DNA of 64,000 nucleotides from Calliopum simillimum. Taxonomy: Eukaryota; Arthropoda; Insecta; Diptera; Lauxaniidae. The position numbers and the translations under genes were made by a program. The stretch is taken from NCBI GenBank assembly GCA_951812925.1, contig OX638369.1, positions 23,775,329 through 23,839,328 on the forward strand, in the 5' to 3' direction. The notes below the pieces were generated by a model that was given only the letters and a program-made list of their open reading frames with translations, had not been told where the DNA came from and made no database searches. This document shows, one piece after another, positions 21,922-64,000 of the stretch (within the stretch, counting starts at the first letter, position 1; the number at the start of each line of letters is the position of its first letter).

Positions 21922-24900
21922 CTAAAAGAGGTCAAACCGAACTCTTTTGACTGGTGTTGATGAGGTGGTTAGTTGATGTTGTGTTGTTATGTCTGTAAAT
22001 GCTGGTTTAATTCTGTCAATAGCGATATTTTGTGTTGTGTTGTTTTTGCGTATAGTGAAGTATTTTGGTGTTCTTTCGATAACTTCAAATGGTCCTTCGT
22101 AAGGATTTTGTAACGAACGTCGAATCCCATCAGTTCGAACAAACACGAATTTGCAGTCTTTCATGTTCAAAGGCATGTAGAAGTTTTCTGATCTCGAATG
22201 GTGAGTAATGTTTGATCTTACGTTGTTGATGTTTTCTCTGAGTTTGGACAATACGTCAGTGGGATCGAATGTTTGTGGATTAGGTACCACGAGTTGGTGT
22301 GGTAATTTCAGCGTTTGGCCGAAAACCATTTCCGCGGGAGATGCTTTGATGTCCTCCTTGATTGTAGATCGAAGGCCTAAAAGAATTATCGGAAGTTCTA
22401 AATACCAATTTTGTTGGTTACTACTCGCTCTTATTGATGCTTTTAGTTGTCGGTGAAATCGTTCAATTATACCATTGGACTGCGGATGGTAAGCAGTGGT
22501 CGTTATTTGATGGCTACCAAGAAATTTAATGAATGTGGTGAAGGTGTTAGAAGTAAATTGGGATCCTCGATCAGAAGTAATTTCTAGAGGAACTCCAAAC
22601 CGTGATACATATTCTCTAAGAAAGGTATTTGTAATTGTGTTTGTTTCCGTATCTTTTAAAGGATATGCCTCGGGCCAACGGGTATTTCTGTCAATAACTG
22701 TAAGCAGGTATCGATAACCATTCGATGGGGGAAGAGGGCCAACTAAATCTATATGAATGTGTTCGAAACGACCCTTTGGAATGTTTATTTTGTGTGGTAC
22801 AGTTTTTGTGTGTCTATGTATTTTCGCTCGTTGACAATTAAGGCATTCTTGTGACCATTGATTAATTTGTTTATTCATATTAGGCCAGAAATAACGTTGA
22901 CCAATAAGGCGTCTAGTAGCTCTTGTTCCAGGATGTGCAATGTTATGTAATTGATCGAAAATCTTTTTACGGAGTTGTTGTGGTATATATGGTCGCGTTG
23001 TGTTATCTGAATGTTCACACCAAATTTTGATGTTAAGGAACGGAATGTCAATTTGTTCGAAGTTATAGATGTGTTTATCAAGAATATCTTTTAATTCATC
23101 GTCGCTCGATTGTTCTGTAAACAATGCCTTCAGGTCCAGATCTGATGTTGCAAAGGCTTCGACGTCACATCGTGATAGTGCGTCCGCTACGGAGTTGTCT
23201 GCACCTTTGATGTGGACTATGTCGCTAGTGAATTGCGCGATATATTCCAGATGTCGTGTTTGTCGTGGACTTCTTTCGGTTTTAGACTGTAAAGCGTATG
23301 TCAGTGGTTTGTGGTCTGTTAAAACTTTAAAAACTCGTCCTTCTAAGTAGTGTCTGAAGTGTTTTATTGTTAGGTAAATTGCCAGTAATTCCCGATCGAA
23401 AGTACTGTATTTTGTTTCAGCTGGACTAAGCTTTTTGGAAAAGAAAGCAAGTGGCTCAAGCTGTGCATTATATTCCTGTTGAAGGACTCCGCCGATGGCC
23501 GTGTTGGAAGCATCTACAGCAATAGATAGTTTTGCTTTACTGTTAAAATGATTAAGCAGTGTTTTCTTAGTAAAACTATCTTTGATTGCCTTAAATGCTT
23601 GTAGTGTAGTGTCGGTCCATTGCAAGTGTTTGTCTTTTGCCTTTGAAGAAGTGGTTACCATTTGGTATATCGAGCTTAGCATGTGTGCTAGTTTTGGAAT
23701 ACATTTGTGGTAATAATTCGTCATTCCAATAAATTTCTGCATCTGTTTGACTGTATTTGGTACTGGATAATCTGTGATGCATTGAATCCGTTCGGTCGAT
23801 GGCTGAATACCGTCTTTTGATATATTGTAACTTAAAAAATTGATGGAGTTAACTCCGAATACGCATTTATTCGGTTTAATATTTAATCCATATTCGTCGA
23901 GACGTTCAAAAACTTGTGTTAAATGTGTGACGTGTTCTTCTTCAGTTTCACTAGCCACGAGTATATCGTCAAGGTATACGAAAATAAAATCTAGTCCTTG
24001 CAGTACTTCGTTGATGAACCTTTGGAATGTTTGTGCTGAATTCCTTAAACCGAATGGCATTCTTAGGAATTCAAACATTCCAAAAGGTGTCGTAATCGCT
24101 GTTTTGTGAACGTCCGCGGTAGCCATGGGAATTTGGTGGTAGGCTCTAATCAGGTCAAGTTTCGAGAAAATTTGTTTATTGTGTAAGTCAATAGAAAGGT
24201 CATGAATGTGTGGTAAAGGGTAGCGGTCTGGTACTGTTATAGCGTTCAGACGTCTGTAATCTCCGCATGGTCTCCAGTCGTTGGGTTCTCGTTTTGGGAC
24301 TAAATGCAGGGGAGATGCAGTCATCGAATCCGACGGACGACAGATTCCATTTTTAACCAAAAACTCGAACTCATTCTTTGCTATCTTTGACTTGAGGAGA
24401 TCTAAGCGTCTTGGTCTTGAGAATGGTAGCTGTCCTTCAGTTATGATGTGGTGTTCTGTTTTGTGTTTGACAGGTTTGTTGTAGTCGGGTTCTGTTGTTA
24501 ATGATGGAAAATGTTTAAGTATTTGTGTGTATTTATTTTCTATGCAAAGTAATTTAGGGAGTGGTGTTTCAGTGAACGCTGTGATAGTGTTAACTGCTAT
24601 GTTAGTTAGTGGGTCAATAAGTCGTTTGTGTTTGAGGTCGATCAAAAGTCCATACTTAGTGAGGAAGTCCGCTCCAATAATAGGTTTTGCAATATCTGCT
24701 AAAATGAAAGTAAAAACAAAATCCCTGCGTAACTTCAAATTTACAGTAAGTAATTTGTTACCGTAAGTGGAAATAGTACTTCCGTTTGCTGCAGTTAGCT
24801 GTAAATCGGACTTGCGTTTAAATGTTTTAAATTTGGAGGCGGGAAGAACTGAAACTTCCGCGCCACTGTCAATAAGGAAATTTAGTTTATTGTCATTGTC

Positions 24901-25011
24901 GAAAATAAAGAGACGACGTGTAAATGTTGTTAGATGTCCATCATCAGCCGTCGCGATGATGGAATCTTTTAGTTTGTTGGTGTGCGTTGGGTGTTTTGAA
25001 CATAAGAACAT
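21922..25011 (-). CDS. pol: Gypsy Pol polyprotein (PR-RT-RNase H-IN)
   Basis: Reads as a full 1029-residue Ty3/gypsy Pol in the usual order. The aspartic protease has LIDSGAEVS (Asp48). The reverse transcriptase has [11 protein letters not shown], with YLDD at 346-349. RNase H follows with [20 protein letters not shown] and VADALSR. The integrase has an HHCC finger ([12 protein letters not shown] to CLNCQR) and the catalytic triad in [16 protein letters not shown] and SNGIIERFH. No catalytic residue is missing and there is no internal stop. It overlaps the end of gag in the -1 frame: the gag stop is at 24969-24971, and the open overlap starts near 25023. Expression is therefore expected as Gag-Pol by -1 frameshifting, although no canonical slippery heptamer is visible in the overlap. 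The first Met at 25011 need not be a real start. Confidence 0.95.
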
Positions 25012-25913
25012 GGTTGTTCACACTTTCTAGCATCGTTACCAAACTTATAGTGGTATCGACAGAGCCAATTTGGTGGGCGTTGACGGGATGAGTTCCGAGA
25101 ATTAGATCGTCTTCTGTAGCGATCTCTAGAAAATGTTCTGTGTGATGAACGATATTGCTGTTGATCCTGTTTTATTGAATTTACTTCTAATGTAAGTTTA
25201 TTAAAGCATTCTAAAATTTTCGAGGTAGTATCTGTGAAGTTTGAAATAACTGCCTGCAGATTAACCGATGGTGAAGCAATTGTTTGAGGCTTAGCTTTTA
25301 TTGAAGAAACTTCACTTTCAGTGATAACTTCCCACAAGTTATCAGCGAGATTTAGAACTTCGGATAATTCTTTTAAATTTGATCCTGTCAAGGCTACATT
25401 TAGACTTTTAGGGAGCTTTCGAAGCCAGATTTTTCGCAAAAAATCTGGTTCGACCGATGTTCCTGCTAAAAGTTCCAAGGATCTGTAGAACTGGGATGGC
25501 TTCCGGTCGCCAATCTCAGAGTCGGATAGTATTTTATCGATCCGTTTGTTCTCGCTCAGAGAGTTACGTTCGATCAAAATTTTCTTAAGACCTTCATACA
25601 AATTTGTGGATGGTGGATTTCGAATGAAATCCAAGACGGTAACAATAACTTCTTGAGGAAGAGCAGTTATTGTATATTCGTACTTGGTCTTATCTACCGA
25701 TATACCTTTGAATTGAAATTGCAATTCCGCGTGGAAAAACCATGCATCGGGACAGTTTGTCCAAAATTGTGGGAGCTTAACGGACGTTGCAGATATTTCG
25801 GACGCAAGAACATTATCGAAAGGGTTTGGAATTGTATTTTGGTCTTGATCCAATTCAATCAATTGAGTTCGATTTGCCGAATCTCCATTATCGCGATTAG
25901 GGGAACGAAACAT
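24969..25913 (-). CDS. gag: Gypsy Gag with CHCC finger
   Basis: A 314-residue Gag starting at ATG 25911-25913. The capsid-like middle is followed by a basic Ser/Arg-rich stretch ([20 protein letters not shown]) and then a finger CRYHYKF...RKC..PC with spacing C-x2-H-x9-C-x3-C. This replaces the usual CCHC knuckle and is characteristic of the CsRn1 group of gypsy elements. Gag packages the element RNA into cytoplasmic particles. It overlaps pol by about 50 bases. The assignment as Gag rests on position, the basic tail and the finger. Confidence 0.9.
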
Positions 25914-26296
25914 TTTAGTATTTATAAGAATAATGTAGTGTTTAAAATTTAGTAAATGTAATTATAAGTGAATTTTTAAGTTGGAAAATAATTATTAAGT
26001 TTAAAGTTGATTTTAATTTTCTTTTTTTTTTTTTTTTTTTTTGGTTTTTTGCACTTAAATAATATCTCTTACGATAATTTTCAGCTAAATAAGCTTATGC
26101 CAGTATCGATGATTAGATATATTGATGTTTGAAGATTCTGCACGTCGAGCTGTTAATGGTTATTTCTTGAGCTATTTTTCTATCTTTAGAAATTGATTGT
26201 TGCTGCTGCAAGAATAATTGCTGGTAGCGGTCGCTGTTGATGTTCTTGGATGAAATGTAGTTTTTTCTTTTTTTTTAAAAATAGGTTAAAAGTCCA

Positions 26297-40609: not shown

Positions 40610-41933
40610 CGAGGGGTCTAACAAAAGTTCGCTTAGTTGAATTGAAAAAACTTTTAAATTTAATTTTTTCAATTTATAACTTTATTCTTCATCTATTTGT
40701 ATTTTTTCAACGTAATCGCCATTTATTTTGATACATTTTTGAAGTCGATAAATCCATCTTGTAAAACAGTCTTCAAAATCGGCTTTTTGCAGTTTTGCAA
40801 TTTCATCATTCACCGCATATATTATCTCCTCATTGCTGTTGAAGACTCTTCCTCTCAAATTTTTTTTTATTTTTGGAAACAACCAGAAGTCACAAGGCGC
40901 TAGACCTGAGGAATAAGGTGCGGGACGAATTTCTTCCATGCCTGAAAGCGCAATAAAATCTGTCGTTTTTTCAGCAGTGTGCGCTGGCGCATTATCGTGA
41001 TGTAGAAAGTAGCGGCGTAGCTCCTTTTTTTGTCGTTTTCCCAATAAATTTTCAAAAACTTCTGGTAAACAGGTTTCATTATACCATTTAGCAGTAACCG
41101 TCTGACCTTTTTCCAAAGTAATAGCAGCTACAACTTTCTCTCTGCTGAAGTAAACTGACATCATTACTTTTGTTGCTGACTTTTTTTTGCTTTACTTTAA
41201 CAGGTTGACTTGCACGTTCTGGGCTCCATACCATGGATAATTGTTTGGTTTCAGGGTCGTACTTATAAAACCATTTTTCATCACTTGTTACTATTTTTTT
41301 GAAAGTGCTAGACTCTCCGTTTTTGTATTTTTAAGGAAAATACTTAGCAAAACGCTTACGTGCCTCTTTTTGAGCATCATTTAAAATTCTAAGAACCCAT
41401 CGTGCAGATTTCTTCGAGTATCCAAGATAATTTTTTAATTTTTCCGATACAGCCATGGCATTCAAGCCCAGTTCCTCAGCAATGATTTTCTGGGTCAATC
41501 TTGGGTCTTCGTCAATTTTAGACTTCACCAGCGATACACTTGCATAATTAGTCGAAGATTTTTGGCGGCCTTCTCAAGGTTCGTCCTCCAAAGAAAAATG
41601 ATCTGTCTGGAATCTTCGGAACCACTTTGAAGTAGTCATGAGAGATGGCGCATCAACTTCAAATGCTATTTGGCATTCACTAAATGTTTCCACAGGCTTG
41701 AGCTTACGTCGAAATCAAAAAAAAAAAGCAAACCGAATCCCTTGTTGCGTTGGCACTGAAATATCTGCTGACATTGTTTCACGAATTTTACGTTTTCTTC
41801 TCTCGATTTTGACCGATCATTCTAAAAATTAAAATGGTATATCGTAAGACTATAACAAATAATACGCAATTTTTTGATTTACTAAAAATTTATAACATGA
41901 CACCAACTAAGCGAACTTTTGTTAGACCCTACG
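40610..41933 (-). mobile_element. Full-length mariner nested in Helitron-like copy
   Basis: TIRs CGAGGGGTCTAACAAAAGTT and the complement of CGTAGGGTCTAACAAAAGTT bound 1324 bases, flanked by TA at 40608-40609 and 41934-41935. The host sequence on either side joins up to match copy 1, which proves the insertion order. The transposase inside is on the minus strand and frameshifted. Confidence 0.92.
40682..41834 (-). pseudogene. Mariner DD34D transposase, broken
   Basis: Pieces in order on the minus strand: the DNA-binding domain (MTTSKWFRRFQTDHFSLEDE near 41640-41580, ending in a stop); a second helix-turn-helix (KSKIDEDPRLTQKIIAEELG, 41331-41528); the first catalytic region TSDEKWFYKYDPETK (about 41285-41240); and a 160-residue C-terminal frame (40682-41164). 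The last has HHDNAPAHT and APCDFWLF, with 34 residues between the two Asp, counted directly. The catalytic triad is therefore present, but at least two frameshifts and one stop interrupt the gene. The usual YSPDLAP reads YSSGLAP here. Not functional as it stands. Confidence 0.85.
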
Positions 41934-51779: not shown

Positions 51780-52135
51780 TGTCACTATTGTTCCTGTCAA
51801 ACATAAAATTTTAAATCGACTTTACTTCGAAAATATTCTAAATACTAATAATTTTTGAACTGCAGTTGGAGTGCCTGGATGTCATTTAAAAATGGGTGTG
51901 ATCAAATAAAAGACACGCTTTCTTCCCATATAACACCAAATTTTAAATCGCCATAACTTCCGAATTATTTCAAGCAAAACAATAATATTTGATGTTTGAA
52001 AAATAATCGTTAGCATCTAGTTTATATTTGATAATGGTTGTGATCAGATCAAGGACACGCCCACCTTCCACCTTCTAGTAAAATTTTTTTTGATATAATC
52101 ATTTTCTGAGAAAATTATACGACATTTTGTAGCAG

Positions 52136-52167
<32 letters not shown>

Positions 52168-53045
52168 CAAAAAAGGGATACAAAATTTGAAATCATTGAC
52201 CTCAAGAACCTTCATAGCCAAAAATTTTTCGTTACATAAAAAAAGAAAATTTAAGAAAAGTGTCCGACATTATGGATCCACCATAAAAAAAAAAACCACC
52301 CCCACTACAATTTGTTTTTGATATAATCATTTGTTGAGAAAACCTCCCGCCATTTTGGATCCGTCATTTTATTGTCCAAAAAAGTGATCACGAGTTTAAA
52401 ATCACTGACCCCAAAAACCCCCCAAGCCAAAATTTTTTAGTCATATAATCAATTCTAAAGATAATTGTCCTCCATTATGAGACCACCATTTGTTAAGTAG
52501 TGATCTCAATAACCCTCATAACTACAATTTAGTTTTGATATAATCATTTTTTTAAAAAATTATGCGCCATTTTGGGTACTCCATTTTGTTTTCAAAAAAA
52601 GTTAATCCCTTATCCGGAATCAACGATTTCAAAAACCCACTAGCCACAATTTTGTCGTGATAAAATTATTCTTTAAAAAAATTGTCCGCTATTTTGTATC
52701 CACCAATTTTTTTCCAAAAAAGTTGATTCCGAGTTTGGAATCAGCGACCTCAAAAACTCTTCTGCTCACAATTTTGCTTTGACATAAAAATTTTTGAGCC
52801 GCCATTTTTGAGCCACCATTTTATCAAAAATTCAAAAAGAACTGTCCTGAATTTGGAATTTGCAAAAAAACTCTCTTAGCTACAATTTTATCGTCTTACG
52901 ATCAATTTCTGAGAAAATTGTTGGCCATTTTTTATCCGCCATTTTGTTTTCAAAAAAACTTGATCCCAAATTTGGAATCAGCTACTGCAGAAACGTAAAA
53001 GCTGATATATTTTTTATCAAAAATGAGCAGGAAAAACTTATGATC
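51780..53045. repeat. Diverged tandem arrays, period about 125-140 bp
   Basis: From about 52080 seven or so units carry TTGATATAATCATTTTCTGAG, then CGCCATTTTGGATCCACCAT, TCAAAAAAGTTGATCCCGA and ACCTCAAAAACCCTCATAG-like blocks. A preceding pair of about 150-base units (51800-52080) has the phrase TTTTAAATCGCCATAACTTC. Some units look like the internal repeats of Helitron-type elements, but no ends were found. Confidence 0.6.
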
Positions 53046-53874
53046 ATCTAGAACCCCATTCTAGAAAACTGTGTGGCGTTCTGCCACAAAACTATGCAGT
53101 ATGTTATTACTGTTCTTTACCACTTAAATACAAAATTAATGTCAATACTGTCCTTCATATGAAGCGGGACATTTTTATGCCATCAATGGATAGCGGAAAC
53201 AAAATTTTGATCATTCTTGGCCTCCTTCAAGGTGCTCGTAATAAGTTGGTTTTCCCGATTTCTTTTTTTTTAAAATCCTTTCACCGCTAGTCTGCACAAA
53301 GGATACGCAAAAAAGTTACTAAAACAACAAAAAACTAAACTCAAGTGGCTATTTGTATCAGCACTTTAAAAGCACAAAAGAAAAGTGAAGCACAAAGTCG
53401 CAAAGAGTAAAAACAAAAGGGAACCTTTTGAACAGAATCACCTACCGAAAACAACAAACGCACAATAAATAGTAACTGCAGGAACAAAAACAAACCAAAA
53501 TGAGCTACTTGGCTGACGGTCTTGTTGTAATTTGCTGTTTTTGTTGCTGTGTTTGTTTATTCCTGGAACTCGTTAAAAAAAACAACAAAAATAAGACAAG
53601 AAGTAAAAGAAAAATGTAAAAAAAACAAACATGCACAATACAAAGAATGTAAATCGTCAAAATGACAGGAAATGCTGGTTTCATCTGTGTGCACGTGAAC
53701 ATCTGTGAGACTCTTTGTGCTCTTTGCAATACATTGATAAGTTAACGTTATTCACCGCCATTGTTACCGTGTTAGTGTCGTTTTACAGTCCTCCAATAGT
53801 CTATATATGTTATATAATAATAGCTCTTCAATAAACTCATTGATAGGCCTTTTTCTGACGAAAACAATACTTTT
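53046..53874. other. Intronic sequence, nothing recognised
   Basis: A-rich sequence up to the BEL insertion site; its last five bases CTTTT are the target duplication. Confidence 0.5.
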
Positions 53875-54450
53875 TGTTTACGTGGAAACGTAAACTATGA
53901 AATAGGCCCCAACTACTTTTCTAAAGTTTTAGAAATATTGCCCAAGTTGATTTTTATACGACGGCAACCCTACCCACTCGCACGGCGAATTCATATTCTA
54001 ATCTAAAATATGTATTGACTTCTATATGTGCGGTGTTGCCGTCTCACTCACTCTGCTGTGTTCTGGCTGAAAATGTCATTCGTACATGACGTGAAAAAAA
54101 AAACCCTTCACTGATTTTTCTAACCTGCTGCAGAACAGCGCGTTTTTTGTGAGTTCGTAAAAAAAAGTAAATTATTCTAACTTAAACCTATCGGTGCTTA
54201 TGAATCTAACTTAAAACTATATTCGCTTATGAGTTAACTTAAAAATAAAGTAAAATAAAAGCTTAGACAACCTAAAAAGAAAAGTGTTTATTTTTTGTAA
54301 CCTGAAAACCCCAAGGGTGCAAGGGATCATCACTTGCGCGAAGCAAGAACCCAGCGAAGCCGTGTTGAGTGGAGCACCCCAGTGCTACAGGTAACCTGTG
54401 TGGTTTTAAGTATTATATTTAAACATATAAATTTGGTCCCCGACCAGACA
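53875..54450 (+). repeat. 5' LTR of BEL element
   Basis: A 576-bp repeat, TG...CA bounded. It contains an AATAAA at 54244-54249, a short stem-loop CTTGCGCGAAGCAAG at about 54333-54347, and a strong splice-donor-like CAG|GTAACC with GT at 54391. It identically matches the 3' LTR at 63163-63738. Confidence 0.95.
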
Positions 54451-54462: not shown

Positions 54463-54556
54463 GCCTTCTTTGTGGCCAGAATACATACCCGTTTCGAAGT
54501 AAAATTTTTTAATTTTTTACGGCATCGGCCATTTTGTTTTCGGGTGTATTTGACAT

Positions 54557-54889
54557 GTGTTTAACCTTTGCAAGTGCGCAAGGTTAACACAAACCCTCGT
54601 GTATTTACATAAGATTTTTTTCCCGCGGAAATTTTATAATTGTGTTTAACCTTTGTAAGCGTACAAGGTTAACACATACCCATGTGTTTTTTCTTTTGTT
54701 AGCGGACAGTTTGTATGTGTGCTTAGCCTGTGAAGTTGATCAAGGTTAACACAAACTCGCGCGTTTTTTCTAACCAAATTGTGATATTTTTCAATATCGT
54801 GTTTTTTAACCTTTGAAGTTGCTGAAGGTTAAAGCAAACACTCGTTTTTTTTTTTTTTTGAAATTTCTAACCATTGAAATATTTCAAGG
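54557..54889 (+). repeat. Tandem stem-loop array in BEL 5' leader
   Basis: Repeated units about 71-85 bases apart, each able to fold into a hairpin. Hairpin 1 (54557-54590) pairs GTGTT-AACCTT with AAGGTTAACAC over 11 base pairs with one bulged T. Hairpin 2 (54642-54675) has the same stem, extended by TGTA/TACA. Hairpin 3 (54717-54752) is weaker. Hairpin 4 (54806-54832) pairs TTAACCTT with AAGGTTAA. Hairpin 5 (54871-54889) is built on TTGAAATATTTCAA. Each is followed by an ACAAAC-CTCG-like spacer. It lies between the primer site and the gag-pol start, where packaging or translation-control structures are expected. Function is not shown by sequence. Confidence 0.75.
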
Positions 54890-55081
54890 TGACATCAAAT
54901 TACACATTATAGAGTAACCTAAACTAATGCAAAGAATCACGCGTTTATTTTACACCAGTGTACACAGCTTTCGAAACCTTTTTTAAGAAATTTTTTATAA
55001 TTTTTTTTTGATATTTTTGTGGACTCGTGACGTAAACAGCAGAGCGTTTCTCGTGTTTTTCAAACAATAGAGCCCCATTTT

Positions 55082-55105
55082 ATGAGTTTTTGTGTGACGA
55101 CATAA
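55082..55105 (+). other. Short upstream ORF in BEL leader
   Basis: ATG at 55082 opens a seven-codon frame (MSFCVTT) closed by TAA, 95 bases before the gag-pol ATG. It could reduce initiation downstream, or be chance. Confidence 0.4.
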
Positions 55106-55200
55106 GCTTTAACCCTGCGTGCATCTCCGCTTCAAAAAGTTTTTTGCGTGATTATTTCTTTTTGCCTTTTGGTTCTTTGGCTTACCGTTTCAATATCAAA

Positions 55201-58200
55201 ATGGAACGAAAGTTGGAGAAGTACTCTCGCCAAAAAATGACCGTTTTGAATTTTGCAGCGAATACCAAGAAAACTAGTAAGGCAAAACAGACTAAAGGTT
55301 TCGTAACAACACGCAAGACTCTTCTTGAGCAATATTGGAGAAATTTCAAAAAGCTTTATGACGAAGTACTTGATGAATATCCAGAGGAAGATTCAGTGAA
55401 AGCTCTGCTAGAGAATGAGGATTTTGATTCAGTAGAATGTTCTTACGTGGAAGCAGTGTCGGAATTGTGCGACATGTTAGAAGTGCTTGAACCACCACAA
55501 GTTCCACCACATATACCCACAGCAAACACCACACTTGACCAAACTTCAATTATTGCTGCAACAACTAGTTTGCCGCGAATAAAGATTCCGCCATTTAATG
55601 GCGCATATTCTCAGTGGTACCCTTTCAAAGATCTTTTTGTTTCAATCGTCACGTCAAATAATTCTTTAACTAATACTCAGCGGCTTCAATACTTAAAAGA
55701 CAGCCTTACTGGGGACGCTCGTCATGCTTTAGATAATATTTCAACCACAGAAGCTAATTTTACCACAGCTTGGGAACTGTTAGAGCGCAAGTACGAAAAT
55801 AAACGTATTATAATTAATGCTTATCTCACTGAGATTACGAATTTAGCTGCAATTCCAAAAGAATGTGCATCAAGTTTGCGAAAACTTCTTGATGGAGTTA
55901 CATCTGCAGTGCGTGCTTTGGAACAGCTTGAGCGTCCAGTTGCACACTGGGACGATTGGTTAGTTTTCATAACTGTCCAAAAGCTGGATTCATCTACACG
56001 AAAAGCTTGGGAGCTTTCGCTTAAGTCAGACTCTGAGGTTCCAACTTTTAAGGAATTGATTCGTTTCATGGAAAACCGTACCCAATCCCTTGAGGTCTTG
56101 CAATGTTTCGGAGATTCCAAGTCGGAAAAAAAGTCGCATATTGAGACAACTCCAAAGCGCGTACATCCTTTGCGATCATTTCACAACAACGTTCAGGTTC
56201 CTAAATGCATAATATGTAAAGATACTCATCCGCTTCGATCATGCGCAAAATTTCTAAAGCTAAACGTTCATGAGCGATATTCTTTAGTGAAAAAGCACAG
56301 TTTTTGTGTAAATTGTTTAGCATTTAACCATGAAGTGAAAAATTGCAAAAGTTTATACACATGTTCCAAATGTAAGAAAAAACACCATACACTGTTGCAT
56401 AGGGAAGATATTCCAAGTTCTCGAAAATTTACTAATCATAAAAGTTATGCAAATGAGCAAACTTTTAACAGAAGTGACAATGCACATAGTTCTGCAGTCA
56501 CTTATACCTCTACAATACAGTCCATTGTTGAAAAACCGACTACGTCGAAAAATTTGTCTACGACAATTAACCCTACGGGTACAGTAAACACCCATTTTAC
56601 GTCAGCCACGAAAAAGGTTATCCTTGGAACGGCATTAATTGACATTTACCATCTGGGATCAACTTTTAAGGCTCGCGCCTTGATTGACCCTGCTTCTGAA
56701 TGCAGCTTCGTGTCAGAACGCATTCAACGTATGCTTAAACTTTCGACCAAACCCATTTCAGCCCAAGTAACGGGTCTGAATGGGACAATCAACACCTTAC
56801 CAACTATGAGGGCTTCGTTTCACATCGGTTCTCCTTTGTACCGAAAAAATCCAATCGAGATGAGTGCACTGGTGGTTCCAAAAGTGACCGAAAATTTGCC
56901 ATCGCTTAATTTCGACATTTCCAATTTCAAAGAAATGCCCTCTTTTGCATTTGCAGATCCGAATTTTAATCGTAGTTCCGTTGTAGATTTGCTTATCGGT
57001 GGAGACCTTTACCCTACAATACTTCTTGGTGGAGTTCAAAAAAATGTTTTTGGATCTCTAATTGGCCAAGAAACCATTTTTGGATGGATCCTCACAGGAC
57101 CAGTGCCAGCTGAGCAACCAATGCTCTCCTTAAAAGTTGTCTCGCATTTTACAGAAATAACTCTGAACGAACAACTTAAAAGATTTTGGGAAATCGAAGA
57201 AATCCCACATAAATCTTTAGTCTCCAAATCCGATGAAATCTGTGAACAGATTTATTCAAGTACCACAAAAAGAAATGTGAATGGACGATATATTGTTAAT
57301 TTACCCTTCAAACTAGAATTTCCTAGATCTAAATCTTTAGGCCAAACGAAATTCATTGCCAGAAGCCAGTTTCTACGAAACGAAAAACAACTACTCAAAA
57401 AACCAGAACTTAAGTCTCAGTATGACAACGTCATATTAGAGTATTTGGAACTCAATCACATGGTCGAAATCGAGCCTAAAAATTTTCAAGAAAATATTTC
57501 TTATTATTTACCCCATCATGCTGTGCTAAAGCCAGATAGTGCAAGCACAAAGCTTCGTGTTGTTTTCAACGCATCGTGTCCCTCTTCGAATTCTAATAGT
57601 TTGAATGACGTCTTATACACGGGACCGGTACTTCAAAACGATTTAGTCACACTTATTCTTAAGTGGCGACTATTCGAATTTGTTTTCAATGCTGACATTC
57701 AAAAAATGTACAGACAAATATTAGTGAACCCAGATCAAACTGCCTTTCAACGAATTATATTTCGCCAAAATTCAGCAGATGAACTTAAAGAGTTTGAGTT
57801 AAAAACCGTCACATTTGGTGTTAACTGTGCACCCTATCTAGCGATTCGTACGCTTTTGCAATTAGCTGATGATGAACAGCACCGTTTCCCGTTAGGCTCA
57901 GAAATTTTACGTGAGCACATGTACGTTGACGACGTTTTAGCTGGATCTCACGATCTTGCAACAGCAAAAAATTGTCGTGATCAGCTCAATAACATTTTGT
58001 TGTCAGCAGGTTTTGAGTTGAGGAAATGGACGGCAAACTCAAAAGAATTGCTTTCTGATCTTCCACAAGATCATTTGTTGAACGCTGAGTTTCTTTCATT
58101 AGAAGACAAAAGTTTAGCAAAAACTCTGGGAATTCGATGGAATGCGAAATTTGATTATTTTTATTTCAACGTTCAACCACTAACACATAAACCAAATTAT

Positions 58201-60486
58201 ACCAAACGCGAAGTTTTGTCTACAATTGCAAAATTGTTTGACCCGGTTGGTTGGCTTTCACCAATCATTATCACAGCCAAAATTATTATGCAGCAACTTT
58301 GGCTCGAGAAAACTGATTGGGATGATAACATAAAAATTCAGTCTCTTCAAAAATGGCATTCCTTTGTTGAAAATTATGAAAAAATTAATGATATTTCATT
58401 ACCTCGGTGGGTACACTTTTCACCCTCGAGTAAAGTTGAATTTCATGCCTTCTCAGACGCTTCTGAAAAAGCTTACGCTTGTGCAGTATACATTCGTGTT
58501 GAAACACAAAACTGCATATTTACCCACTTATTGACTTCGAAATCTAAAGTTTCACCAGTTAAAACCATATCGTTGCCCAGACTTGAACTTTGTGGTGCAG
58601 TTTTGCTGGCAAAACTTGTGAACTCTGTGATTCCACAATTAAAAATTGATAATTTTTCAATATTCAAGTGGACGGATTCCACAATTGTTCTTTCATGGTT
58701 GCAAAAACCTCCATGCACATGGAAAACATTCGTTGCAAACAGAGTCACCACTATAATTGACAAACTAGGCATTGAAAATTGGGCTCATGTCGATACCAGG
58801 GATAACCCTGCCGACCTAGCAACCCGGGGGCTACATCCTGCGGATCTTAAAAATAGTAAGCTCTGGTGGAATGGTCCTTCTTGGCTTAAGCTTCCAAAAT
58901 CTGAATGGCCAAAAAGTTCATGTTTACTACAACCAGATACTACACTGGAGAGCAAGCCTGTGAAATCTTTCATTACTAGCTCGACAGTGAGGGAAGATAT
59001 CTTGGAGCGTTTTTCCTCTTTAGACAAAGCGTTGCGAGTGATTGCCCATATTTTTCGATTTTTTAATCGAGCTCGTCGACTTGTCGACTCAACACCACCT
59101 TACACGTCCGGTAAGATTTCAAGTGAAGAACTGAAATTTGTGAAAAGGAGACTAATTCGACTATCTCAGCAAATTTACTTCCATAATGACTACTTTCATT
59201 TACTAGATAGTAAACTAATTGATTCCAAAAGTTCTTTGTTAACTTTGACTCCGTTTATGGATCGAGAAAACATAATAAGAGCAAATGGTCGCCTAGCATC
59301 TTCTCCAGCTTTGGATTACAATGAAAGGCATCCTATAATACTCGCGTATGAAAGTCGTTTTTCCAGATTACTAGTGAAATCTATGCATCATATGTCTCTT
59401 CATGGTGAAAACCAGTTAGTTCTTCGTCTAATACGTCGTGAGTTTTGGATACTCAAAGTGAAAAATTTAATAAAAACTTGTATCCACAACTGCAAAATTT
59501 GTGTCATTAATAAAAGGCGCTACCATGGTCAAATTATGGCTGCCTTACCTCCTGAGCGTGGAACCATATCACGTCCTTTTACCAACACAGGCGTTGATTT
59601 TGCTGGACCCTTTGAGATAAAAAGTTTTACTGGTAGATACTGTAAAATTACCAAAGGATATGCTTGCCTCTTTGTCTGTTTTTCTACAAAGGCTATCCAT
59701 CTTGAACCCGTGAGTGATCTGACGTCCCAGGCTTTCTTAGCAGCTCTATCAAGATTTGTTTCCCGAAGAGGTTGTCCTGATAACATATATTCAGACAATG
59801 GGACCAACTTCGTGGGTGCCGCTGGAATGCTTCAAAAGGATTTTAAACGCTTTATACAAGTTGTTAAGGACGATACAGTTGAAAAATATGGCTATCAGCA
59901 ACTTTCATGGCACTTTATACCGGCCTCAGCACCCCACATGGGTGGCCTATGGGAAGCCGGCGTAAAATCCTTCAAGAAACACTTTAGAAAGATCACCGGA
60001 CACTTAAAGTATACTTTTGAAGAGTTTGCCACGATACTCGCGAGAATAGAGGCTTGTCTCAATTCGAGACCACTCAGCGCTGCGTCTGAGAACGCAACTG
60101 ACTTGGCTGTGCTGACTCCAGGGCACTTCTTAGTTGGAGCCCCATTGTTGTCTCCAGCAGAACCAGAAGACACCAATTCAACCATCAGCATTTTAAACCG
60201 CTGGCAGAGAGTCAAAGCCACAGCTCAAGAGTTTTGTCGTCGCTGGAAGGATGAGTACTTGAAAGAGCTACTTAAGCGCACCAAATGGAAGACACCAACA
60301 GCTAACCAAAAAATAGGAGATCTTGTCGTCATACGCCATGAATCACTCTGTCCTACAGAGTGGAGACTCGGCCGTATCATCAAAATCTTTCACGGTTCTG
60401 ACGGAAAGGTTCGTGTGGCAACTTTAAACACTAACTCCGGTGAGATCACACGACCAATCCAGAAACTCGTTGTGATTCCCCAATGA
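55201..60486 (+). CDS. gag-pol: BEL/Pao Gag-Pol polyprotein
   Basis: The start chosen is ATG 55201 in good context (AAAATGG); the frame is open further 5' but without ATG. It encodes 1761 residues in one frame, the normal BEL arrangement. The Gag part has the DUF1759-type block (RIKIPPFNGAYSQWYPFKDL), then three knuckle-like motifs from residue 336: CIICKDTHPLRSC, CVNCLAFNHEVKNC and CSKCKKKHHTLLH. The protease has ALIDPASECSFV with Asp496, ending at TIFGWILTGP (DUF1758 type). The reverse transcriptase has YVDD at 908-911. RNase H has SDASEKA (Asp1086), LPRLELCG and KWTDST. The integrase has an HHCC finger (HHMSLHGE to CKICV), Asp1466, Asp1532 and Glu1585, then a DUF5641-type C-terminal domain. 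All catalytic residues are present and no stop interrupts it. Confidence 0.96.
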   Translation: MERKLEKYSRQKMTVLNFAANTKKTSKAKQTKGFVTTRKTLLEQYWRNFKKLYDEVLDEYPEEDSVKALLENEDFDSVECSYVEAVSELCDMLEVLEPPQVPPHIPTANTTLDQTSIIAATTSLPRIKIPPFNGAYSQWYPFKDLFVSIVTSNNSLTNTQRLQYLKDSLTGDARHALDNISTTEANFTTAWELLERKYENKRIIINAYLTEITNLAAIPKECASSLRKLLDGVTSAVRALEQLERPVAHWDDWLVFITVQKLDSSTRKAWELSLKSDSEVPTFKELIRFMENRTQSLEVLQCFGDSKSEKKSHIETTPKRVHPLRSFHNNVQVPKCIICKDTHPLRSCAKFLKLNVHERYSLVKKHSFCVNCLAFNHEVKNCKSLYTCSKCKKKHHTLLHREDIPSSRKFTNHKSYANEQTFNRSDNAHSSAVTYTSTIQSIVEKPTTSKNLSTTINPTGTVNTHFTSATKKVILGTALIDIYHLGSTFKARALIDPASECSFVSERIQRMLKLSTKPISAQVTGLNGTINTLPTMRASFHIGSPLYRKNPIEMSALVVPKVTENLPSLNFDISNFKEMPSFAFADPNFNRSSVVDLLIGGDLYPTILLGGVQKNVFGSLIGQETIFGWILTGPVPAEQPMLSLKVVSHFTEITLNEQLKRFWEIEEIPHKSLVSKSDEICEQIYSSTTKRNVNGRYIVNLPFKLEFPRSKSLGQTKFIARSQFLRNEKQLLKKPELKSQYDNVILEYLELNHMVEIEPKNFQENISYYLPHHAVLKPDSASTKLRVVFNASCPSSNSNSLNDVLYTGPVLQNDLVTLILKWRLFEFVFNADIQKMYRQILVNPDQTAFQRIIFRQNSADELKEFELKTVTFGVNCAPYLAIRTLLQLADDEQHRFPLGSEILREHMYVDDVLAGSHDLATAKNCRDQLNNILLSAGFELRKWTANSKELLSDLPQDHLLNAEFLSLEDKSLAKTLGIRWNAKFDYFYFNVQPLTHKPNYTKREVLSTIAKLFDPVGWLSPIIITAKIIMQQLWLEKTDWDDNIKIQSLQKWHSFVENYEKINDISLPRWVHFSPSSKVEFHAFSDASEKAYACAVYIRVETQNCIFTHLLTSKSKVSPVKTISLPRLELCGAVLLAKLVNSVIPQLKIDNFSIFKWTDSTIVLSWLQKPPCTWKTFVANRVTTIIDKLGIENWAHVDTRDNPADLATRGLHPADLKNSKLWWNGPSWLKLPKSEWPKSSCLLQPDTTLESKPVKSFITSSTVREDILERFSSLDKALRVIAHIFRFFNRARRLVDSTPPYTSGKISSEELKFVKRRLIRLSQQIYFHNDYFHLLDSKLIDSKSSLLTLTPFMDRENIIRANGRLASSPALDYNERHPIILAYESRFSRLLVKSMHHMSLHGENQLVLRLIRREFWILKVKNLIKTCIHNCKICVINKRRYHGQIMAALPPERGTISRPFTNTGVDFAGPFEIKSFTGRYCKITKGYACLFVCFSTKAIHLEPVSDLTSQAFLAALSRFVSRRGCPDNIYSDNGTNFVGAAGMLQKDFKRFIQVVKDDTVEKYGYQQLSWHFIPASAPHMGGLWEAGVKSFKKHFRKITGHLKYTFEEFATILARIEACLNSRPLSAASENATDLAVLTPGHFLVGAPLLSPAEPEDTNSTISILNRWQRVKATAQEFCRRWKDEYLKELLKRTKWKTPTANQKIGDLVVIRHESLCPTEWRLGRIIKIFHGSDGKVRVATLNTNSGEITRPIQKLVVIPQ

Positions 60487-60739
60487 TTTAATATTTTTTA
60501 TATTTTGTTCTATATGACTGTTTGTATCTGTTGAAATAAATACCTTTTCTAACCTATAACCACTCTATTGAATTATACAAAATGCTTTATTTGTGAAATT
60601 ACCCAAAAACACACTCTACAGATTAAAATATATAACAGGTGAACGCGAGAATCAACACCGTTGGACGTTTCATCGGACTATAGCAGTCAAATTTACCATC
60701 TTTCAACCAGCTTTAGCACACAGTCAACTCACCATCGTC
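60487..60739 (+). other. Spacer between gag-pol and first accessory ORF
   Basis: AT-rich, with AATAAA near 60535-60540 and an acceptor-like ACACTCTACAG ending near 60621. The reading frame of the next unit is open here from about 60593, but no ATG lies in it before 60740. Confidence 0.5.
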
Positions 60740-61162
60740 ATGGCTCCAGTCATCAAAAAATGTTATTCAGCTTCTTGTCATTGTTGTCGCAAACAAGATA
60801 CAAGCGACCACAGGACCCGTGTCTCACATCTGGAGCATAAAACCAGCAACCACGCCGTTCGCCATGTTGCATGTGGCGTATGCAAAAAGGACCACCGTCT
60901 CTCAACATGTTATAAATACCGTGAGATGAATTTGACCAAGAAGTACGATACGGTCATTAGTATGCATTATTGCATCAACTGCTTGGCTCGGTCTCACAAC
61001 ATCAAAAACTGTACTAGTCACGATAAGTGTGCGATTTGTCATGCGAAGCATCATACTAGCTTGCATGGTCATCCTCGCGTGATTGCAGCTGCGCATCAAG
61101 ATTTAAGGGATACTCGGTCTACCAACGAAATCAGAATTTTGTGCTCTAAGCAGACTCTGTAA
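60740..61162 (+). CDS. BEL accessory ORF A, zinc-knuckle part
   Basis: 140 residues from ATG 60740 (the first in-frame ATG) to TAA at 61160-61162. It carries the same three Cys/His motifs, in the same order, as the Gag of this element: CGVCKKDHRLSTC, CINCLARSHNIKNC and CAICHAKHHTSLH. The residues between are different, so it is a diverged paralogue, not a recent copy of the gag region. It has a basic N-terminus and no capsid domain, signal peptide or membrane segment. The next 150 codons after the stop are in the same frame and continue the homology (see 61163-61612), so the natural product may be longer through read-through or splicing. A nucleic-acid-binding role is inferred from the knuckles. 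Confidence 0.7.
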   Translation: MAPVIKKCYSASCHCCRKQDTSDHRTRVSHLEHKTSNHAVRHVACGVCKKDHRLSTCYKYREMNLTKKYDTVISMHYCINCLARSHNIKNCTSHDKCAICHAKHHTSLHGHPRVIAAAHQDLRDTRSTNEIRILCSKQTL

Positions 61163-61612
61163 TCTACAGCAACAATAAAATTGCATTTTGATGGTGAATA
61201 CCAGACTCTCAGAGGGCTAATCAACCCAGCAGTAGCGGTAACGACAATTGCCTCCGAAACTGTGAAAAAGCTAAAGATAAAGTTGATCTACCTTGAGTCA
61301 AAGAAGTTTTGCAATATTGTCGTTGGTTCAAAAATAAATCCAAAGTTCAAATTGGAGATAAGTGCTCTCATCAGTGACGAGCTTCCAAAAAGGATCTACC
61401 GACAAGATCTACCGGAGAGTGCCAAAAGAGCGTATAACAACATCATGTTGACGGACCAAAATTATACATCGTCTTCCAAGATTGAAGTGATCCTTGGAGC
61501 CGATATTTACCCGCAGATAATGAAATCTGGAAGTATGCTCTCCGAAAATGGAAGAATGTTGGCGCAAAATACAGTGTTTGGCTGGATTGTGTCTGGTCCA
61601 TGTGGACTATGA
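61163..61612 (+). pseudogene. BEL accessory ORF A, protease-like part after in-frame stop
   Basis: Open in the same frame as 60740-61159, separated by one TAA. There is no ATG near its beginning, so it cannot be translated independently in a simple way. It aligns with the protease part of gag-pol: LRGLINPAVAVTTI matches ARALIDPASECSFV, with the catalytic Asp changed to Asn (codon 61223-61225). It also has a VILGADIYPQIM block matching LLIGGDLYPTIL, and it ends TVFGWIVSGPCG. Either the stop is a recent lesion, or it is bypassed. Predicted to lack proteolytic activity. Confidence 0.7.
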
Positions 61613-61829
61613 AATGTCTTTTTTTATATATGAAGTAAAATGTATATGACCCAAAAATGAATTTTAACCCTTATAAAACCATGTATGTATATATCTATAT
61701 ATGTAAAGAAATAAAATGAATTAACCTGTGAATATGACAAATTTTCGTTGACCCGTACATGTACGCCTTGCTTTACGTCACCTTAATCTGACTCACATAA
61801 ATTTACTCCTTTTTTTAATTACTTTTAGC
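61613..61829 (+). promoter_or_regulatory. Spacer with strong 3' splice site before ORF B
   Basis: Contains an AATAAA at about 61711-61716, a branch-like TTAATCTGACTCA (about 61784-61796) and a pyrimidine tract ending CTTTTTTTAATTACTTTTAG. The AG is at 61827-61828, one base before the ATG of ORF B. The LTR offers a matching donor CAG|GTAACC at 54391. Confidence 0.6.
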
Positions 61830-62600
61830 ATGTTGCAGCAAAACAAAAAGCGCTACAGTCGGTCATGTCCGCTGTGCGGAAACGGCCACTGCTTAAGGCA
61901 ATGCCAGGATTTTCTCAAACTGACACCAATAAACCGAAAACGCGTCGTGCACATAAATGGGATCTGCAGCAATTGCCTTGCACTATCGCATAAGGCAGAG
62001 CATTGCACCAGCAACAACAAATGCCACTGGTGCTATCAGAAGCACCATACCTTGCTCCATGATAGGTCAGAAATATTCATTAACCATCTCGAAGAGAAGC
62101 TATTTGATGCTTCGACTGTGCACCTAAAAATGACTGCCAATGTGCTCTTAGTGGGAACTAGAGAGGACCACAGCCTAAGGGCCCTGATTAATCCAAGCCA
62201 GGCCTCGTCGCTTATCTGCAGGAGCAAGGCTGAGCAATTGAAAATTCCGCTGTTTGACACACCACGTGATGCAGTGCCAACTTGCCATCTGGAGATAAGG
62301 TCCTCCATTAATCCTTTAAAAGGGTTTACGGCCTGTTTTTTGGCAGTGCCACAGCCTCTTGGAAAGTTTCCGCCCGTCAGAGCGAACAAGTCAAAAATAG
62401 AGTACTTCTACCCAGGACTAGTCATGGCAGATCGCCACTTTTACATGCCACTAGACGTGGATATTGTGCTCGGTGAGCAATTGTACACTAAAATCATCGA
62501 GCGAGCAACCAAAGCTGCGAACGGCGTCCCTACGGCCCAATCCACAATATTCGGTTGGTCATTCATCGGAGTCTGCCCACGAGCAGTCAAACAATCCTGA
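61830..62600 (+). CDS. BEL accessory ORF B, zinc-knuckle plus protease-like
   Basis: 256 residues, uninterrupted. Three Cys/His motifs start at residue 13: CPLCGNGHCLRQC, CSNCLALSHKAEHC and CHWCYQKHHTLLH. A protease-like domain follows, with ALINPSQASSLI aligned to ALIDPASECSFV; the catalytic Asp is Asn121. It then has DIVLGEQLYTKI (compare LLIGGDLYPTIL), and it ends with TIFGWSFIGVC, the motif that closes the protease domain in gag-pol. It lacks capsid, reverse transcriptase and any membrane segment, and occupies the position of an envelope gene. Its motif order duplicates ORF A, but the sequence is well diverged, so both come from an old duplication of the NC-PR segment and were kept open. 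Likely an inactive-protease RNA-binding accessory or regulator (inference). Confidence 0.8.
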   Translation: MLQQNKKRYSRSCPLCGNGHCLRQCQDFLKLTPINRKRVVHINGICSNCLALSHKAEHCTSNNKCHWCYQKHHTLLHDRSEIFINHLEEKLFDASTVHLKMTANVLLVGTREDHSLRALINPSQASSLICRSKAEQLKIPLFDTPRDAVPTCHLEIRSSINPLKGFTACFLAVPQPLGKFPPVRANKSKIEYFYPGLVMADRHFYMPLDVDIVLGEQLYTKIIERATKAANGVPTAQSTIFGWSFIGVCPRAVKQS

Positions 62601-63148
62601 AATTTGTATGACATTTAAAAACAAATCTAAGAATTTATAGTTTTTTTCCTATTTTTCAAAAAAAAACTAGAACTTGAATTTTATTTTGTCTCTTCATTTA
62701 TCAAAAAGTTTTTTAAAATTCGTATTCTCGCATTTATCAAACACTTAAAATTACTATTACTTCTTTTTTTATCATTAGTCATACAAAATATTAAAACTTG
62801 TATTTTTATTTTTTTTTTTCCGAAAGACACAAATCTCTTTTCTGATGTCAAAAACAATTTATTTTTCTTGAGCATTACCTACTTTACCAAAACAAAAAAA
62901 AAAAACATTATCGAACATGAATTACTACCTTTATTTATGTAAAAAAAAAAAAAAAAATTTTCTGAAAACAAAAAAATCTTTTTCATATTCACTTTTGTAA
63001 ACATAAAAAAAAAAAAACAAAAAAAAATGTCTTCTAACTACAAAAAGAATTGATAATAAAATCTATCATGAAATTAAAATGTATCTAAATATTTTAAGAT
63101 TTTAAGCATTCGAATTAGAGTCACTATGATTCTCTGTTGCAGATGCTG
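62601..63148 (+). other. AT-rich 3' region of BEL element
   Basis: Long A and T runs, no open frame of interest. Confidence 0.5.
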
Positions 63149-63162: not shown

Positions 63163-63738
63163 TGTTTACGTGGAAACGTAAACTATGAAATAGGCCCCAA
63201 CTACTTTTCTAAAGTTTTAGAAATATTGCCCAAGTTGATTTTTATACGACGGCAACCCTACCCACTCGCACGGCGAATTCATATTCTAATCTAAAATATG
63301 TATTGACTTCTATATGTGCGGTGTTGCCGTCTCACTCACTCTGCTGTGTTCTGGCTGAAAATGTCATTCGTACATGACGTGAAAAAAAAAACCCTTCACT
63401 GATTTTTCTAACCTGCTGCAGAACAGCGCGTTTTTTGTGAGTTCGTAAAAAAAAGTAAATTATTCTAACTTAAACCTATCGGTGCTTATGAATCTAACTT
63501 AAAACTATATTCGCTTATGAGTTAACTTAAAAATAAAGTAAAATAAAAGCTTAGACAACCTAAAAAGAAAAGTGTTTATTTTTTGTAACCTGAAAACCCC
63601 AAGGGTGCAAGGGATCATCACTTGCGCGAAGCAAGAACCCAGCGAAGCCGTGTTGAGTGGAGCACCCCAGTGCTACAGGTAACCTGTGTGGTTTTAAGTA
63701 TTATATTTAAACATATAAATTTGGTCCCCGACCAGACA
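63163..63738 (+). repeat. 3' LTR of BEL element
   Basis: 576 bp, read against the 5' LTR line by line with no difference found. Followed by the target duplication CTTTT. Confidence 0.95.
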
Positions 63739-64000
63739 CTTTTCTTCAATGTCAAAGCCACGCCTTCTGTTACAACATAACTTTTCCATACCTTTTACCC
63801 ATGTTGTGATATATCACAAGCTTAGAGCTTCTGCTTTCATTCAAAAACACGGTTTTCTTTTTGATTTTATCATATAAAAGTTTTCACGAAGATATTTCGT
63901 TAATGATTTTAGCATAATATTTAGCGAAAATTTGTATTAATCAAAAAATTTGCATCAAATAATATTTTCTTACATATTTACTAATTTTTTAAATTTGTTT

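What the first reader, a model, noticed from the sequence alone, without database searches (positions are those of the whole stretch)
60740..62600. BEL retrotransposon carries two extra nucleocapsid-protease-like genes with the protease active site disabled
Seen: downstream of a complete gag-pol, two coding units repeat only the three Cys/His motifs plus the DUF1758-like protease segment, each ending in the same FGW motif. In both, IDPA-type active sites read INPA/INPS, so Asp is replaced by Asn. Known: BEL/Pao elements normally have a single gag-pol, sometimes followed by an envelope gene. Inference: two independent units with the same Asp-to-Asn change, otherwise kept open in an element with identical LTRs, suggest selection for protease-dead NC-PR proteins. 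They may be dominant-negative regulators of particle maturation (compare the Gag-derived copy-number control protein of yeast Ty1), RNA chaperones or decoys of host silencing.
Basis: partly seen in the sequence, partly recalled or inferred. Interest (0 to 1): 0.88.

Follow-up and report, generated by a model that had tools for sequence, protein, structure and literature searches.

The report
Conserved dead-protease genes in fly retrotransposon
A fly retrotransposon carries, behind its normal genes, extra genes that repeat only its RNA-binding and protease parts; the first has asparagine in place of the protease's cutting residue in 35 of 36 other copies and shows purifying selection between copies, so it likely makes a non-cutting, RNA-binding partner that would tune the element's own particles.

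Summary
The two extra NC-PR-like units are real and lie in a BEL/Pao element with identical 576-base LTRs and a CTTTT duplication. One correction: ORF A is not open here; a stop at 61160-61162 splits it. None of 36 other copies fetched from this genome has that stop, and 22 of 36 read ORF A to its end.

In ORF A the Asn is not private: 35 of 36 copies have it, while gag-pol protease keeps Asp in 19 of 20 of these elements looked at (one not covered). ORF A dN/dS is 0.07-0.19. Relatives occur in tephritid and muscid flies; 22 of 31 with the site have Asn. ORF A's protease part is modelled as a retropepsin (pLDDT 90.8).

ORF B differs: it diverges fast, is exchanged between subfamilies, is deleted in ten copies, and has Asn in 13 and Asp in 4 of 17 open copies. 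An AG one base before its ATG in 19 of 23 copies suggests splicing.

Best reading: accessory genes for protease-dead, RNA-binding Gag-like proteins. How they act is inferred; no expression data were available.

The parts
53870..53874 (.). target-site duplication CTTTT, 5' side
   Evidence: identical 5 bases at 63739-63743
53875..54450 (+). 5' LTR, 576 bases, TG..CA
   Evidence: 0 differences to the 3' LTR
54545..54843 (+). four stem-loops in the 5' leader, candidate RNA-packaging or NC-binding hairpins (role inferred)
   Evidence: each folds alone at -13.2 to -14.9 kcal/mol, z -1.6 to -3.1; similar sequences
55036..60486 (+). gag-pol frame (stop to stop; first Met 55201)
   Evidence: DUF1759, RVT_1 (below curated cut-off), Peptidase_A17, H2C2 integrase zinc domain, rve (below cut-off), DUF5641 in this order; no inner stop
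56206..56400 (+). gag-pol NC: three Cys/His motifs
   Evidence: pattern match
56629..57102 (+). gag-pol protease stretch, Asp codon 56686-56688, FGW 57079-57087
   Evidence: tblastn, coordinates
60740..61159 (+). ORF A, NC part, 140 codons from ATG to the in-frame stop; motifs at 60872-61066
   Evidence: 35 of 36 positions invariant in 11 relatives are kept
61160..61162 (+). in-frame stop TAA that splits ORF A in this copy
   Evidence: sequence; in 0 of 36 other copies (in L043 the place was extrapolated)
61163..61612 (+). ORF A, protease-like part, Asn codon 61223-61225, FGW 61577-61585, own stop at 61610-61612
   Evidence: model pLDDT 90.8, retropepsin-like fold
61801..61828 (+). predicted 3' splice site (pyrimidine tract and AG) ending one base before the ATG of ORF B
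   Evidence: rank 11 of 504 AGs; AG one base before the ATG in 19 of 23 copies with an ORF B match
61830..62600 (+). ORF B, 256 codons: NC motifs 61866-62060, protease-like part with Asn codon 62190-62192, FGW 62550-62558
   Evidence: relatives behind ORF A in 23 of 36 other copies
63163..63738 (+). 3' LTR
63739..63743 (.). target-site duplication CTTTT, 3' side

Best explanation
The extra units are genes of a BEL/Pao element that likely descend from an old copy of its NC-protease region and likely make RNA-binding proteins whose protease-like part is predicted to fold as a retropepsin but not to cut. Shown: ORF A follows the end of pol in 31 of 36 other copies in the genome; both its parts are under purifying selection between copies; its Asn is in 35 of 36 other copies and in most insect relatives that have the site; ORF B is a faster-changing cassette, exchanged between subfamilies and deleted from some. 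Predicted: retropepsin-like fold of the ORF A part (high-confidence model); splicing to the AG just before the ATG of ORF B. Inferred: the basic three-knuckle NC binds the element's RNA; the dead protease part still pairs with itself or with the protease of Gag-Pol and holds substrate without cutting; the proteins so tune packaging and maturation in trans (ORF A the constant partner, ORF B the variable one facing the host or rival subfamilies). In this copy ORF A would give only the 140-residue NC part.
Against: No transcript, protein or activity data. This copy's ORF A is split by a stop, and 14 of 36 other copies have it broken or incomplete. Behind the stop 20 of 29 positions invariant in the 11 relatives are kept against 34 of 35 before it (p 0.004), a contrast no other row shows so strongly, although dN/dS between copies shows no relaxation. 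ORF B has Asp in 4 of 17 open copies, its nearest database rows have Asp, and ten copies have lost it. The active-site column is only 34th slowest of 153 in the 9 C-type rows, with Ser in two. Foldseek itself ranks the fold match weakly (best E 9.8e-4, TM 0.41). In the NC tree ORF B is unresolved beside gag-pol. Dimerisation was not modelled. The genomic setting of the database relatives was not seen.
Confidence: 0.6

Rival explanations
1. Self-encoded brake: the dead NC-PR proteins pair with the protease of Gag-Pol or enter particles and block maturation, so that mobility falls as copies rise, as with Ty1 p22/p18.
For: D-to-N retropepsins exist as solved structures, dimeric M-PMV protease D26N among them (titles); Asn is kept and not lost at random in ORF A; the Ty1 precedent is in print (PMC8458377 abstract; PMC4599808 abstract start).
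Against: ORF A PR has 38 of 149 positions identical with its own gag-pol PR, so mixed dimers are not assured; Ty1 p22 is a plain piece of Gag, these are separate, diverged genes; an element gains little from two brakes; ORF B is lost in ten copies.
Confidence: 0.25
2. RNA helper: the NC part is the working part (packaging, nuclear export or chaperone) and the dead protease is only a dimer or docking module, kept dead because a free active protease would cut Gag too early.
For: NC of ORF A keeps 34 of 35 invariant positions; NC-like relatives without a protease part exist (P0033-P0036, P0038); Cer1 of C. elegans has an accessory protein needed for RNA export (PMC10309623 passages).
Against: Between copies the PR part of ORF A is as constrained as NC, so it is more than a passive tail.
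Confidence: 0.35
3. Weapon or shield against the host or against sister elements: ORF B in particular changes fast and is exchanged as a cassette, as expected for a protein that meets a changing host factor or excludes rival subfamilies.
For: ORF B end branches 0.36-0.69 against 0.01-0.05 for gag-pol NC-PR of the window, L026, L027 and L037; window and L009 differ at 8 of 900 bases over 60700-61599 but at about half of the bases from 61750 on.
Against: Fast change fits weak constraint too; the four pairs of close ORF B copies that could be measured have dN/dS 0.20-0.35 on few changes; positive selection was not tested; ORF A is conserved.
Confidence: 0.2
4. Neutral leftovers: tandem duplicates in decay, with no function.
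For: ORF A is split here; 14 of 36 other copies have it broken or incomplete; ORF B is deleted in ten copies.
Against: dN/dS 0.07-0.19, open frames in several subfamilies with PR dS near 1, Asn kept through synonymous change; relatives in other fly families.
Confidence: 0.04
5. Captured or domesticated host genes: the relatives are host genes that restrict BEL elements, and this element picked some up.
For: Database relatives with names are annotated as ordinary fly genes; a domesticated yeast Gag gene restricts its parent element (PMC10951436 abstract).
Against: In this genome 14 of 37 ORF A copies lie inside an LTR pair found with the window's LTR and 31 of 36 others have the end of pol just upstream; for the rest this was not established. 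No single-copy host locus was seen, but the search scored only 40 candidates.
Confidence: 0.12

Closest known systems
Ty1 p22/p18 copy-number-control protein (yeast)
   Same: a Gag-derived protein made apart from Gag-Pol by the element itself
   Different: [quoted passage not shown] here separate, diverged genes of NC plus dead protease; restriction not shown
Domesticated Gag restriction gene DRT2 (yeast Ty1')
   Same: Gag-derived gene outside the normal gag-pol
   Different: DRT2 is a host gene (abstract); here the genes sit inside the element
CERV of Cer1 (C. elegans)
   Same: accessory protein of an LTR element made from spliced RNA, with a cysteine-rich part (passages)
   Different: its first exons share the gag frame; needed for RNA export; the passages name no protease part
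sORF1/sORF2 of MDG1-group elements (Drosophila)
   Same: accessory small genes in a fly LTR element
   Different: sORF2 is a transmembrane, fusogen-like protein of Metaviridae (passages of a preprint); ORF A and B show no such hydrophobic stretch
Achilles (Bactrocera oleae), a BEL/Pao element
   Same: gag-pol with the Pao-type third CCHHH motif, protease, RT, RNase H, integrase (passages)
   Different: the analysed sequence of about 7.5 kb ends with gag-pol, so what lies behind pol there is not known
Env genes of insect endogenous retroviruses
   Same: position behind pol; spliced subgenomic RNA (in print for env; inferred here)
   Different: no env domain and no membrane segment in ORF A or B

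Membership tests
BEL/Pao LTR retrotransposon | two LTRs with TG..CA and a short target duplication | tested here: met
   576-base identical LTRs, CTTTT
BEL/Pao LTR retrotransposon | single gag-pol with DUF1759 gag, Pao-type RT/RNase H (Peptidase_A17), integrase, DUF5641 | tested here: met
   (RVT_1 and rve below curated cut-off)
BEL/Pao LTR retrotransposon | third NC motif of CCHHH type (PMC4580426 passage) | tested here: met
   CX2CX3HHX3H in gag-pol, ORF A and ORF B
active retropepsin | retropepsin fold | tested here: met
   [not shown]
active retropepsin | catalytic Asp in a D-x-[G/A] motif | tested here: not met
   Asn in ORF A (35 of 36 other copies) and ORF B (13 of 17 other open copies); the 4 with Asp read DPR, DPY or DTY
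retroviral env gene | membrane-spanning segment and env domain | tested here: not met
   highest 19-residue hydropathy mean 0.35, 0.96, 1.02 for ORF A NC, ORF A PR, ORF B; four of 38 relatives (P0006, P0016, P0017, P0020) reach 1.69-1.88; no Pfam env match
Ty1-type copy-number-control protein | plain piece of the element's own Gag | tested here: not met
   NC 28 of 65 and PR 38 of 149 identical to own gag-pol
Ty1-type copy-number-control protein | lowers mobility in trans | not testable with these tools
   needs an experiment
functional element gene under selection | dN/dS well below 1 between copies | tested here: met
   ORF A 0.07-0.19; ORF B 0.20-0.35 in the 4 close pairs with measurable dS, few changes; saturated between subfamilies
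spliced subgenomic gene | conserved 3' splice site before the start codon | tested here: met
   ORF B, sequence level only: 19 of 23 copies; for ORF A no clear site
spliced subgenomic gene | observed spliced RNA | not testable with these tools
   no RNA data

The most novel reading that the evidence does not exclude
Fly BEL elements carry a two-part control module: ORF A, a constant protease-dead NC-PR protein that acts on the element's own particles, and ORF B, a fast-changing, swappable version that sets which subfamily or host defence it works on, so that mobile elements use catalytically dead copies of their own protease for self and non-self control.
Probability: 0.18. Interest if true: 0.9.

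Novelty: new variant of a known kind. Interest (0 to 1): 0.72.

Why it matters
If right, a group of insect retrotransposons has kept a dead copy of its own protease joined to an RNA-binding domain for long enough to be shared by tephritid and muscid flies, or has passed it between them. That would be a natural, element-encoded case of what has been done in the laboratory to viral proteases (Asp to Asn), and it would make self-control of retrotransposons testable in animals. It would also give a meaning to several gene models now listed as 'uncharacterized' in fly genomes.

Tried and rejected
Led nowhere: viral-contig scans with ORF B, with alignments A5, A6, A7 and with an RT stretch and one genome-contig scan found no relative; a tblastn of the ORF A protease part against phages found none. 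Pfam gave no family above its cut-off for ORF A, ORF B or the nine relatives scanned. A first structure prediction (P0002 with 11 rows) was poor, pLDDT 39.8, and was not used. The PDB sequence search with A8 gave one weak hit, AIR2, E 0.15.

Considered and dropped: the stop in ORF A as a normal feature (0 of 36 other copies have it); env gene (no membrane segment in ORF A or B); recent in-element duplication (the extra genes group apart from gag-pol, 100/100; that tree holds 14 of the 38 database proteins and gag-pol rows of this genome only, so the place of the extra genes among other BEL gag-pols is open); neutral decay of ORF A (dN/dS). The 3' splice site before ORF A is doubtful: the best AG within 70 bases ranks 52 of 504. 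The splice-site tables came from general knowledge. A copy count from pol, to check ORF A without choosing by ORF A, did not complete; the LTR search stands in for it. 11 LTR hits stayed unpaired. Rows dropped before counts: P0007, P0031-P0038 and the ORF A NC piece from the PR tree; six rows without a full NC pattern from the NC tree; L016 from dN/dS (gap); the four shortest of 41 matches were not fetched. P0031 repeats the end of P0027 and is counted in the 22 of 31. The protein search admits only proteins of 0.55 to 1.75 times the query length, so full gag-pol proteins could not appear among the 38. In the AG count, L025 has the same string one base out of register, L032 has lost the AG, and for L033 and L034 the start used was that of a longer upstream frame. 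That nothing like this is in print rests on search listings alone; subscription journals and Repbase were not searched.

Full report
What is there. The window holds a BEL/Pao element with LTRs at 53875-54450 and 63163-63738 (0 differences in 576 bases) and the target duplication CTTTT on both sides. Gag-pol is one frame, 55036-60486, with DUF1759, Pao-type reverse transcriptase/RNase H, integrase parts and DUF5641. Behind it lie two further units. ORF A starts at 60740 and shows three Cys/His motifs, then a protease-like stretch; ORF B, 61830-62600, has the same make-up. The Asp of the gag-pol protease (codon 56686) is Asn at 61223 and at 62190.

A correction. It has an in-frame TAA at 61160-61162, between its two parts. 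The protease-like frame runs on for 149 codons after it.

Other copies in the same genome. A DNA search of the window's own genome (690 Mb, 334 contigs) with 501 bases of ORF A gave 41 matches (49 candidates, 40 scored, so a lower bound). I fetched the stretch around ORF A for 36 other copies and left out the four shortest matches. In 31 of 36 the end of pol matches just upstream. None of the 36 has the window's stop. In 22 of 36 the frame is open from ATG to the end of ORF A (289-290 codons); 14 are broken or incomplete. The site reads Asn in 35 of 36; the exception, Thr in L043, is in a copy broken near its start. These copies were chosen by ORF A. An independent search with the LTR alone (103 candidates, 40 scored) gave 14 LTR pairs, the window's among them, and all 14 hold an ORF A match (one search printed 13 because I had typed 18 of the places; the last pair holds the match C4:65722587). 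11 LTR hits stayed unpaired.

Selection. I compared 15 of the 231 possible pairs among the window and 21 open copies. In the 11 pairs between distant subfamilies dS is 0.43-0.67 (NC) and 0.64-1.05 (PR), while dN is 0.055-0.087. dN/dS is 0.08-0.19 for NC (15 pairs) and 0.07-0.15 for PR (14 pairs; the closest pair has 3 nonsynonymous and no synonymous change). The Asn codon is AAC in 18 and AAT in 4 of the 22 rows. As a control, the gag-pol protease of 20 of these elements keeps Asp in 19; in one the match did not cover the site. So ORF A is a kept gene, and its Asn is kept with it.

Relatives in other flies. Three protein searches found 38 proteins, the named ones from Zeugodacus, Bactrocera, Anastrepha, Rhagoletis, Musca, Haematobia, Stomoxys and Lucilia. 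The tool admits only proteins near the query's length, so full gag-pol proteins could not appear. All three zinc patterns are matched in 30 of 38. Of the 31 that hold the site, 22 have Asn, 3 Ser and 6 Asp; only P0001 (DSGS) and the partial P0007 (DQGS) look like ordinary active sites, the other four with Asp read DQCA. In 11 A-type proteins Asn-Pro is invariant. By site rate the Asn column is 5th slowest of 148 in 13 A-type rows and 9th of 149 in 25 rows, but only 34th of 153 in the 9 C-type rows (P0022-P0030, four of them named as Musca). In the protease tree ORF A falls with the A and C types (94/84) and ORF B with P0001 and four Musca proteins (93/80, long branches), which have Asp. In the NC tree ORF A sits in a 15-row group with full support, while ORF B is unresolved beside gag-pol. 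Five proteins (P0033-P0036, P0038) are NC-like with no protease part. I could not see the genomic surroundings of any of these.

ORF B is a different story. It has a relative behind ORF A in 23 of 36 copies: 99% identical protein in L021-L024, 37-58% in 18 others, and a deleted copy, L032, 96% over 90 residues. The window and L009 differ at 8 of 900 bases across 60700-61599 but at about half of the bases from 61750 on, whereas L022 differs at 43 of 900 in the first stretch and hardly at all in the second: the join lies between ORF A and ORF B, so ORF B moves as a cassette. Ten copies (L011-L019, L039) keep its splice-like site and first codons but have lost the body, perhaps by one event. Of 17 other copies with an open frame over 200 codons, 13 have Asn and 4 Asp (L009, L010, L026, L043); these four read DPR, DPY or DTY, not the D-x-[G/A] of an ordinary site. 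In the four close pairs that could be measured dN/dS is 0.20-0.35 on few changes; between subfamilies dS is saturated. On a tree of 25 rows ORF B types have end branches of 0.36-0.69 against 0.01-0.05 for four gag-pol rows.

Expression, inferred. A pyrimidine run and AG stand one base before the ATG of ORF B in 19 of 23 copies, though the proteins behind them are often under 60% alike. This is what a kept 3' splice site looks like. For ORF A no such clear site is seen. Env of insect endogenous retroviruses is made from spliced RNA (PMC12992720 passages), so the route has a precedent.

How it may work. The NC parts of ORF A and B are basic (+14, +10) and match all three zinc patterns, so RNA binding is likely. 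The protease part is kept, folded by prediction, and without its acid. I think the proteins bind element RNA and contact Gag or Gag-Pol without cutting, and so tune packaging or maturation. Whether the net effect is a brake or a help cannot be told here. In this copy ORF A would yield an NC-only protein, as some relatives are by nature. Against 11 relatives its part behind the stop keeps 20 of 29 invariant positions, against 34 of 35 before it (p 0.004); dN/dS between copies shows equal constraint on both parts, so I read this as distance, not decay, but it is the strongest such contrast among the 12 rows tested.

Compared with what is known. Ty1 p22/p18 (abstract), DRT2 (abstract), CERV of Cer1 (passages) and sORF1/2 of MDG1 elements (passages of a preprint) are the nearest kinds. 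The BEL/Pao survey PMC3118150 (passages) speaks of one or two frames and, in few elements, env. The sequence of Achilles (PMC4580426, passages) ends with gag-pol, so it says nothing on what lies behind. My searches listed no paper on extra NC-protease genes in BEL elements; that is not proof of absence.

Noticed in passing
54545-54843: Four tandem stem-loops with the stem UAACCUU/AAGGUUA in the 5' leader of the element; possible packaging or NC-binding sites.
   Followed up: partly
60400-62700: The window copy is a mosaic: ORF A like L009, ORF B and LTR like L021 and L022, join between 61600 and 61750.
   Followed up: yes
21922-25961 (- strand): Frames that look by eye like a Ty3/gypsy-type element: 1031 aa pol-like and 330 aa gag-like.
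   Followed up: no
19531-20052 (+) and 40682-41191 (-): Frames that look by eye like pieces of mariner-type transposase.
   Followed up: no
52081-52994: AT-rich imperfect repeats of about 65-129 bases just outside the element.
   Followed up: no
60535 and 61710: AATAAA signals behind pol and behind ORF A; could be alternative poly(A) sites or chance in AT-rich DNA.
   Followed up: no
database proteins P0033-P0036, P0038: NC-like proteins without a protease part, some ending in a similar short stretch by eye, in Haematobia, Rhagoletis, Lucilia and Stomoxys.
   Followed up: partly
database proteins P0006, P0016, P0017, P0020 (Musca): B-type relatives with a hydrophobic 19-residue stretch (mean 1.69-1.88) that ORF A and B lack.
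   Followed up: no
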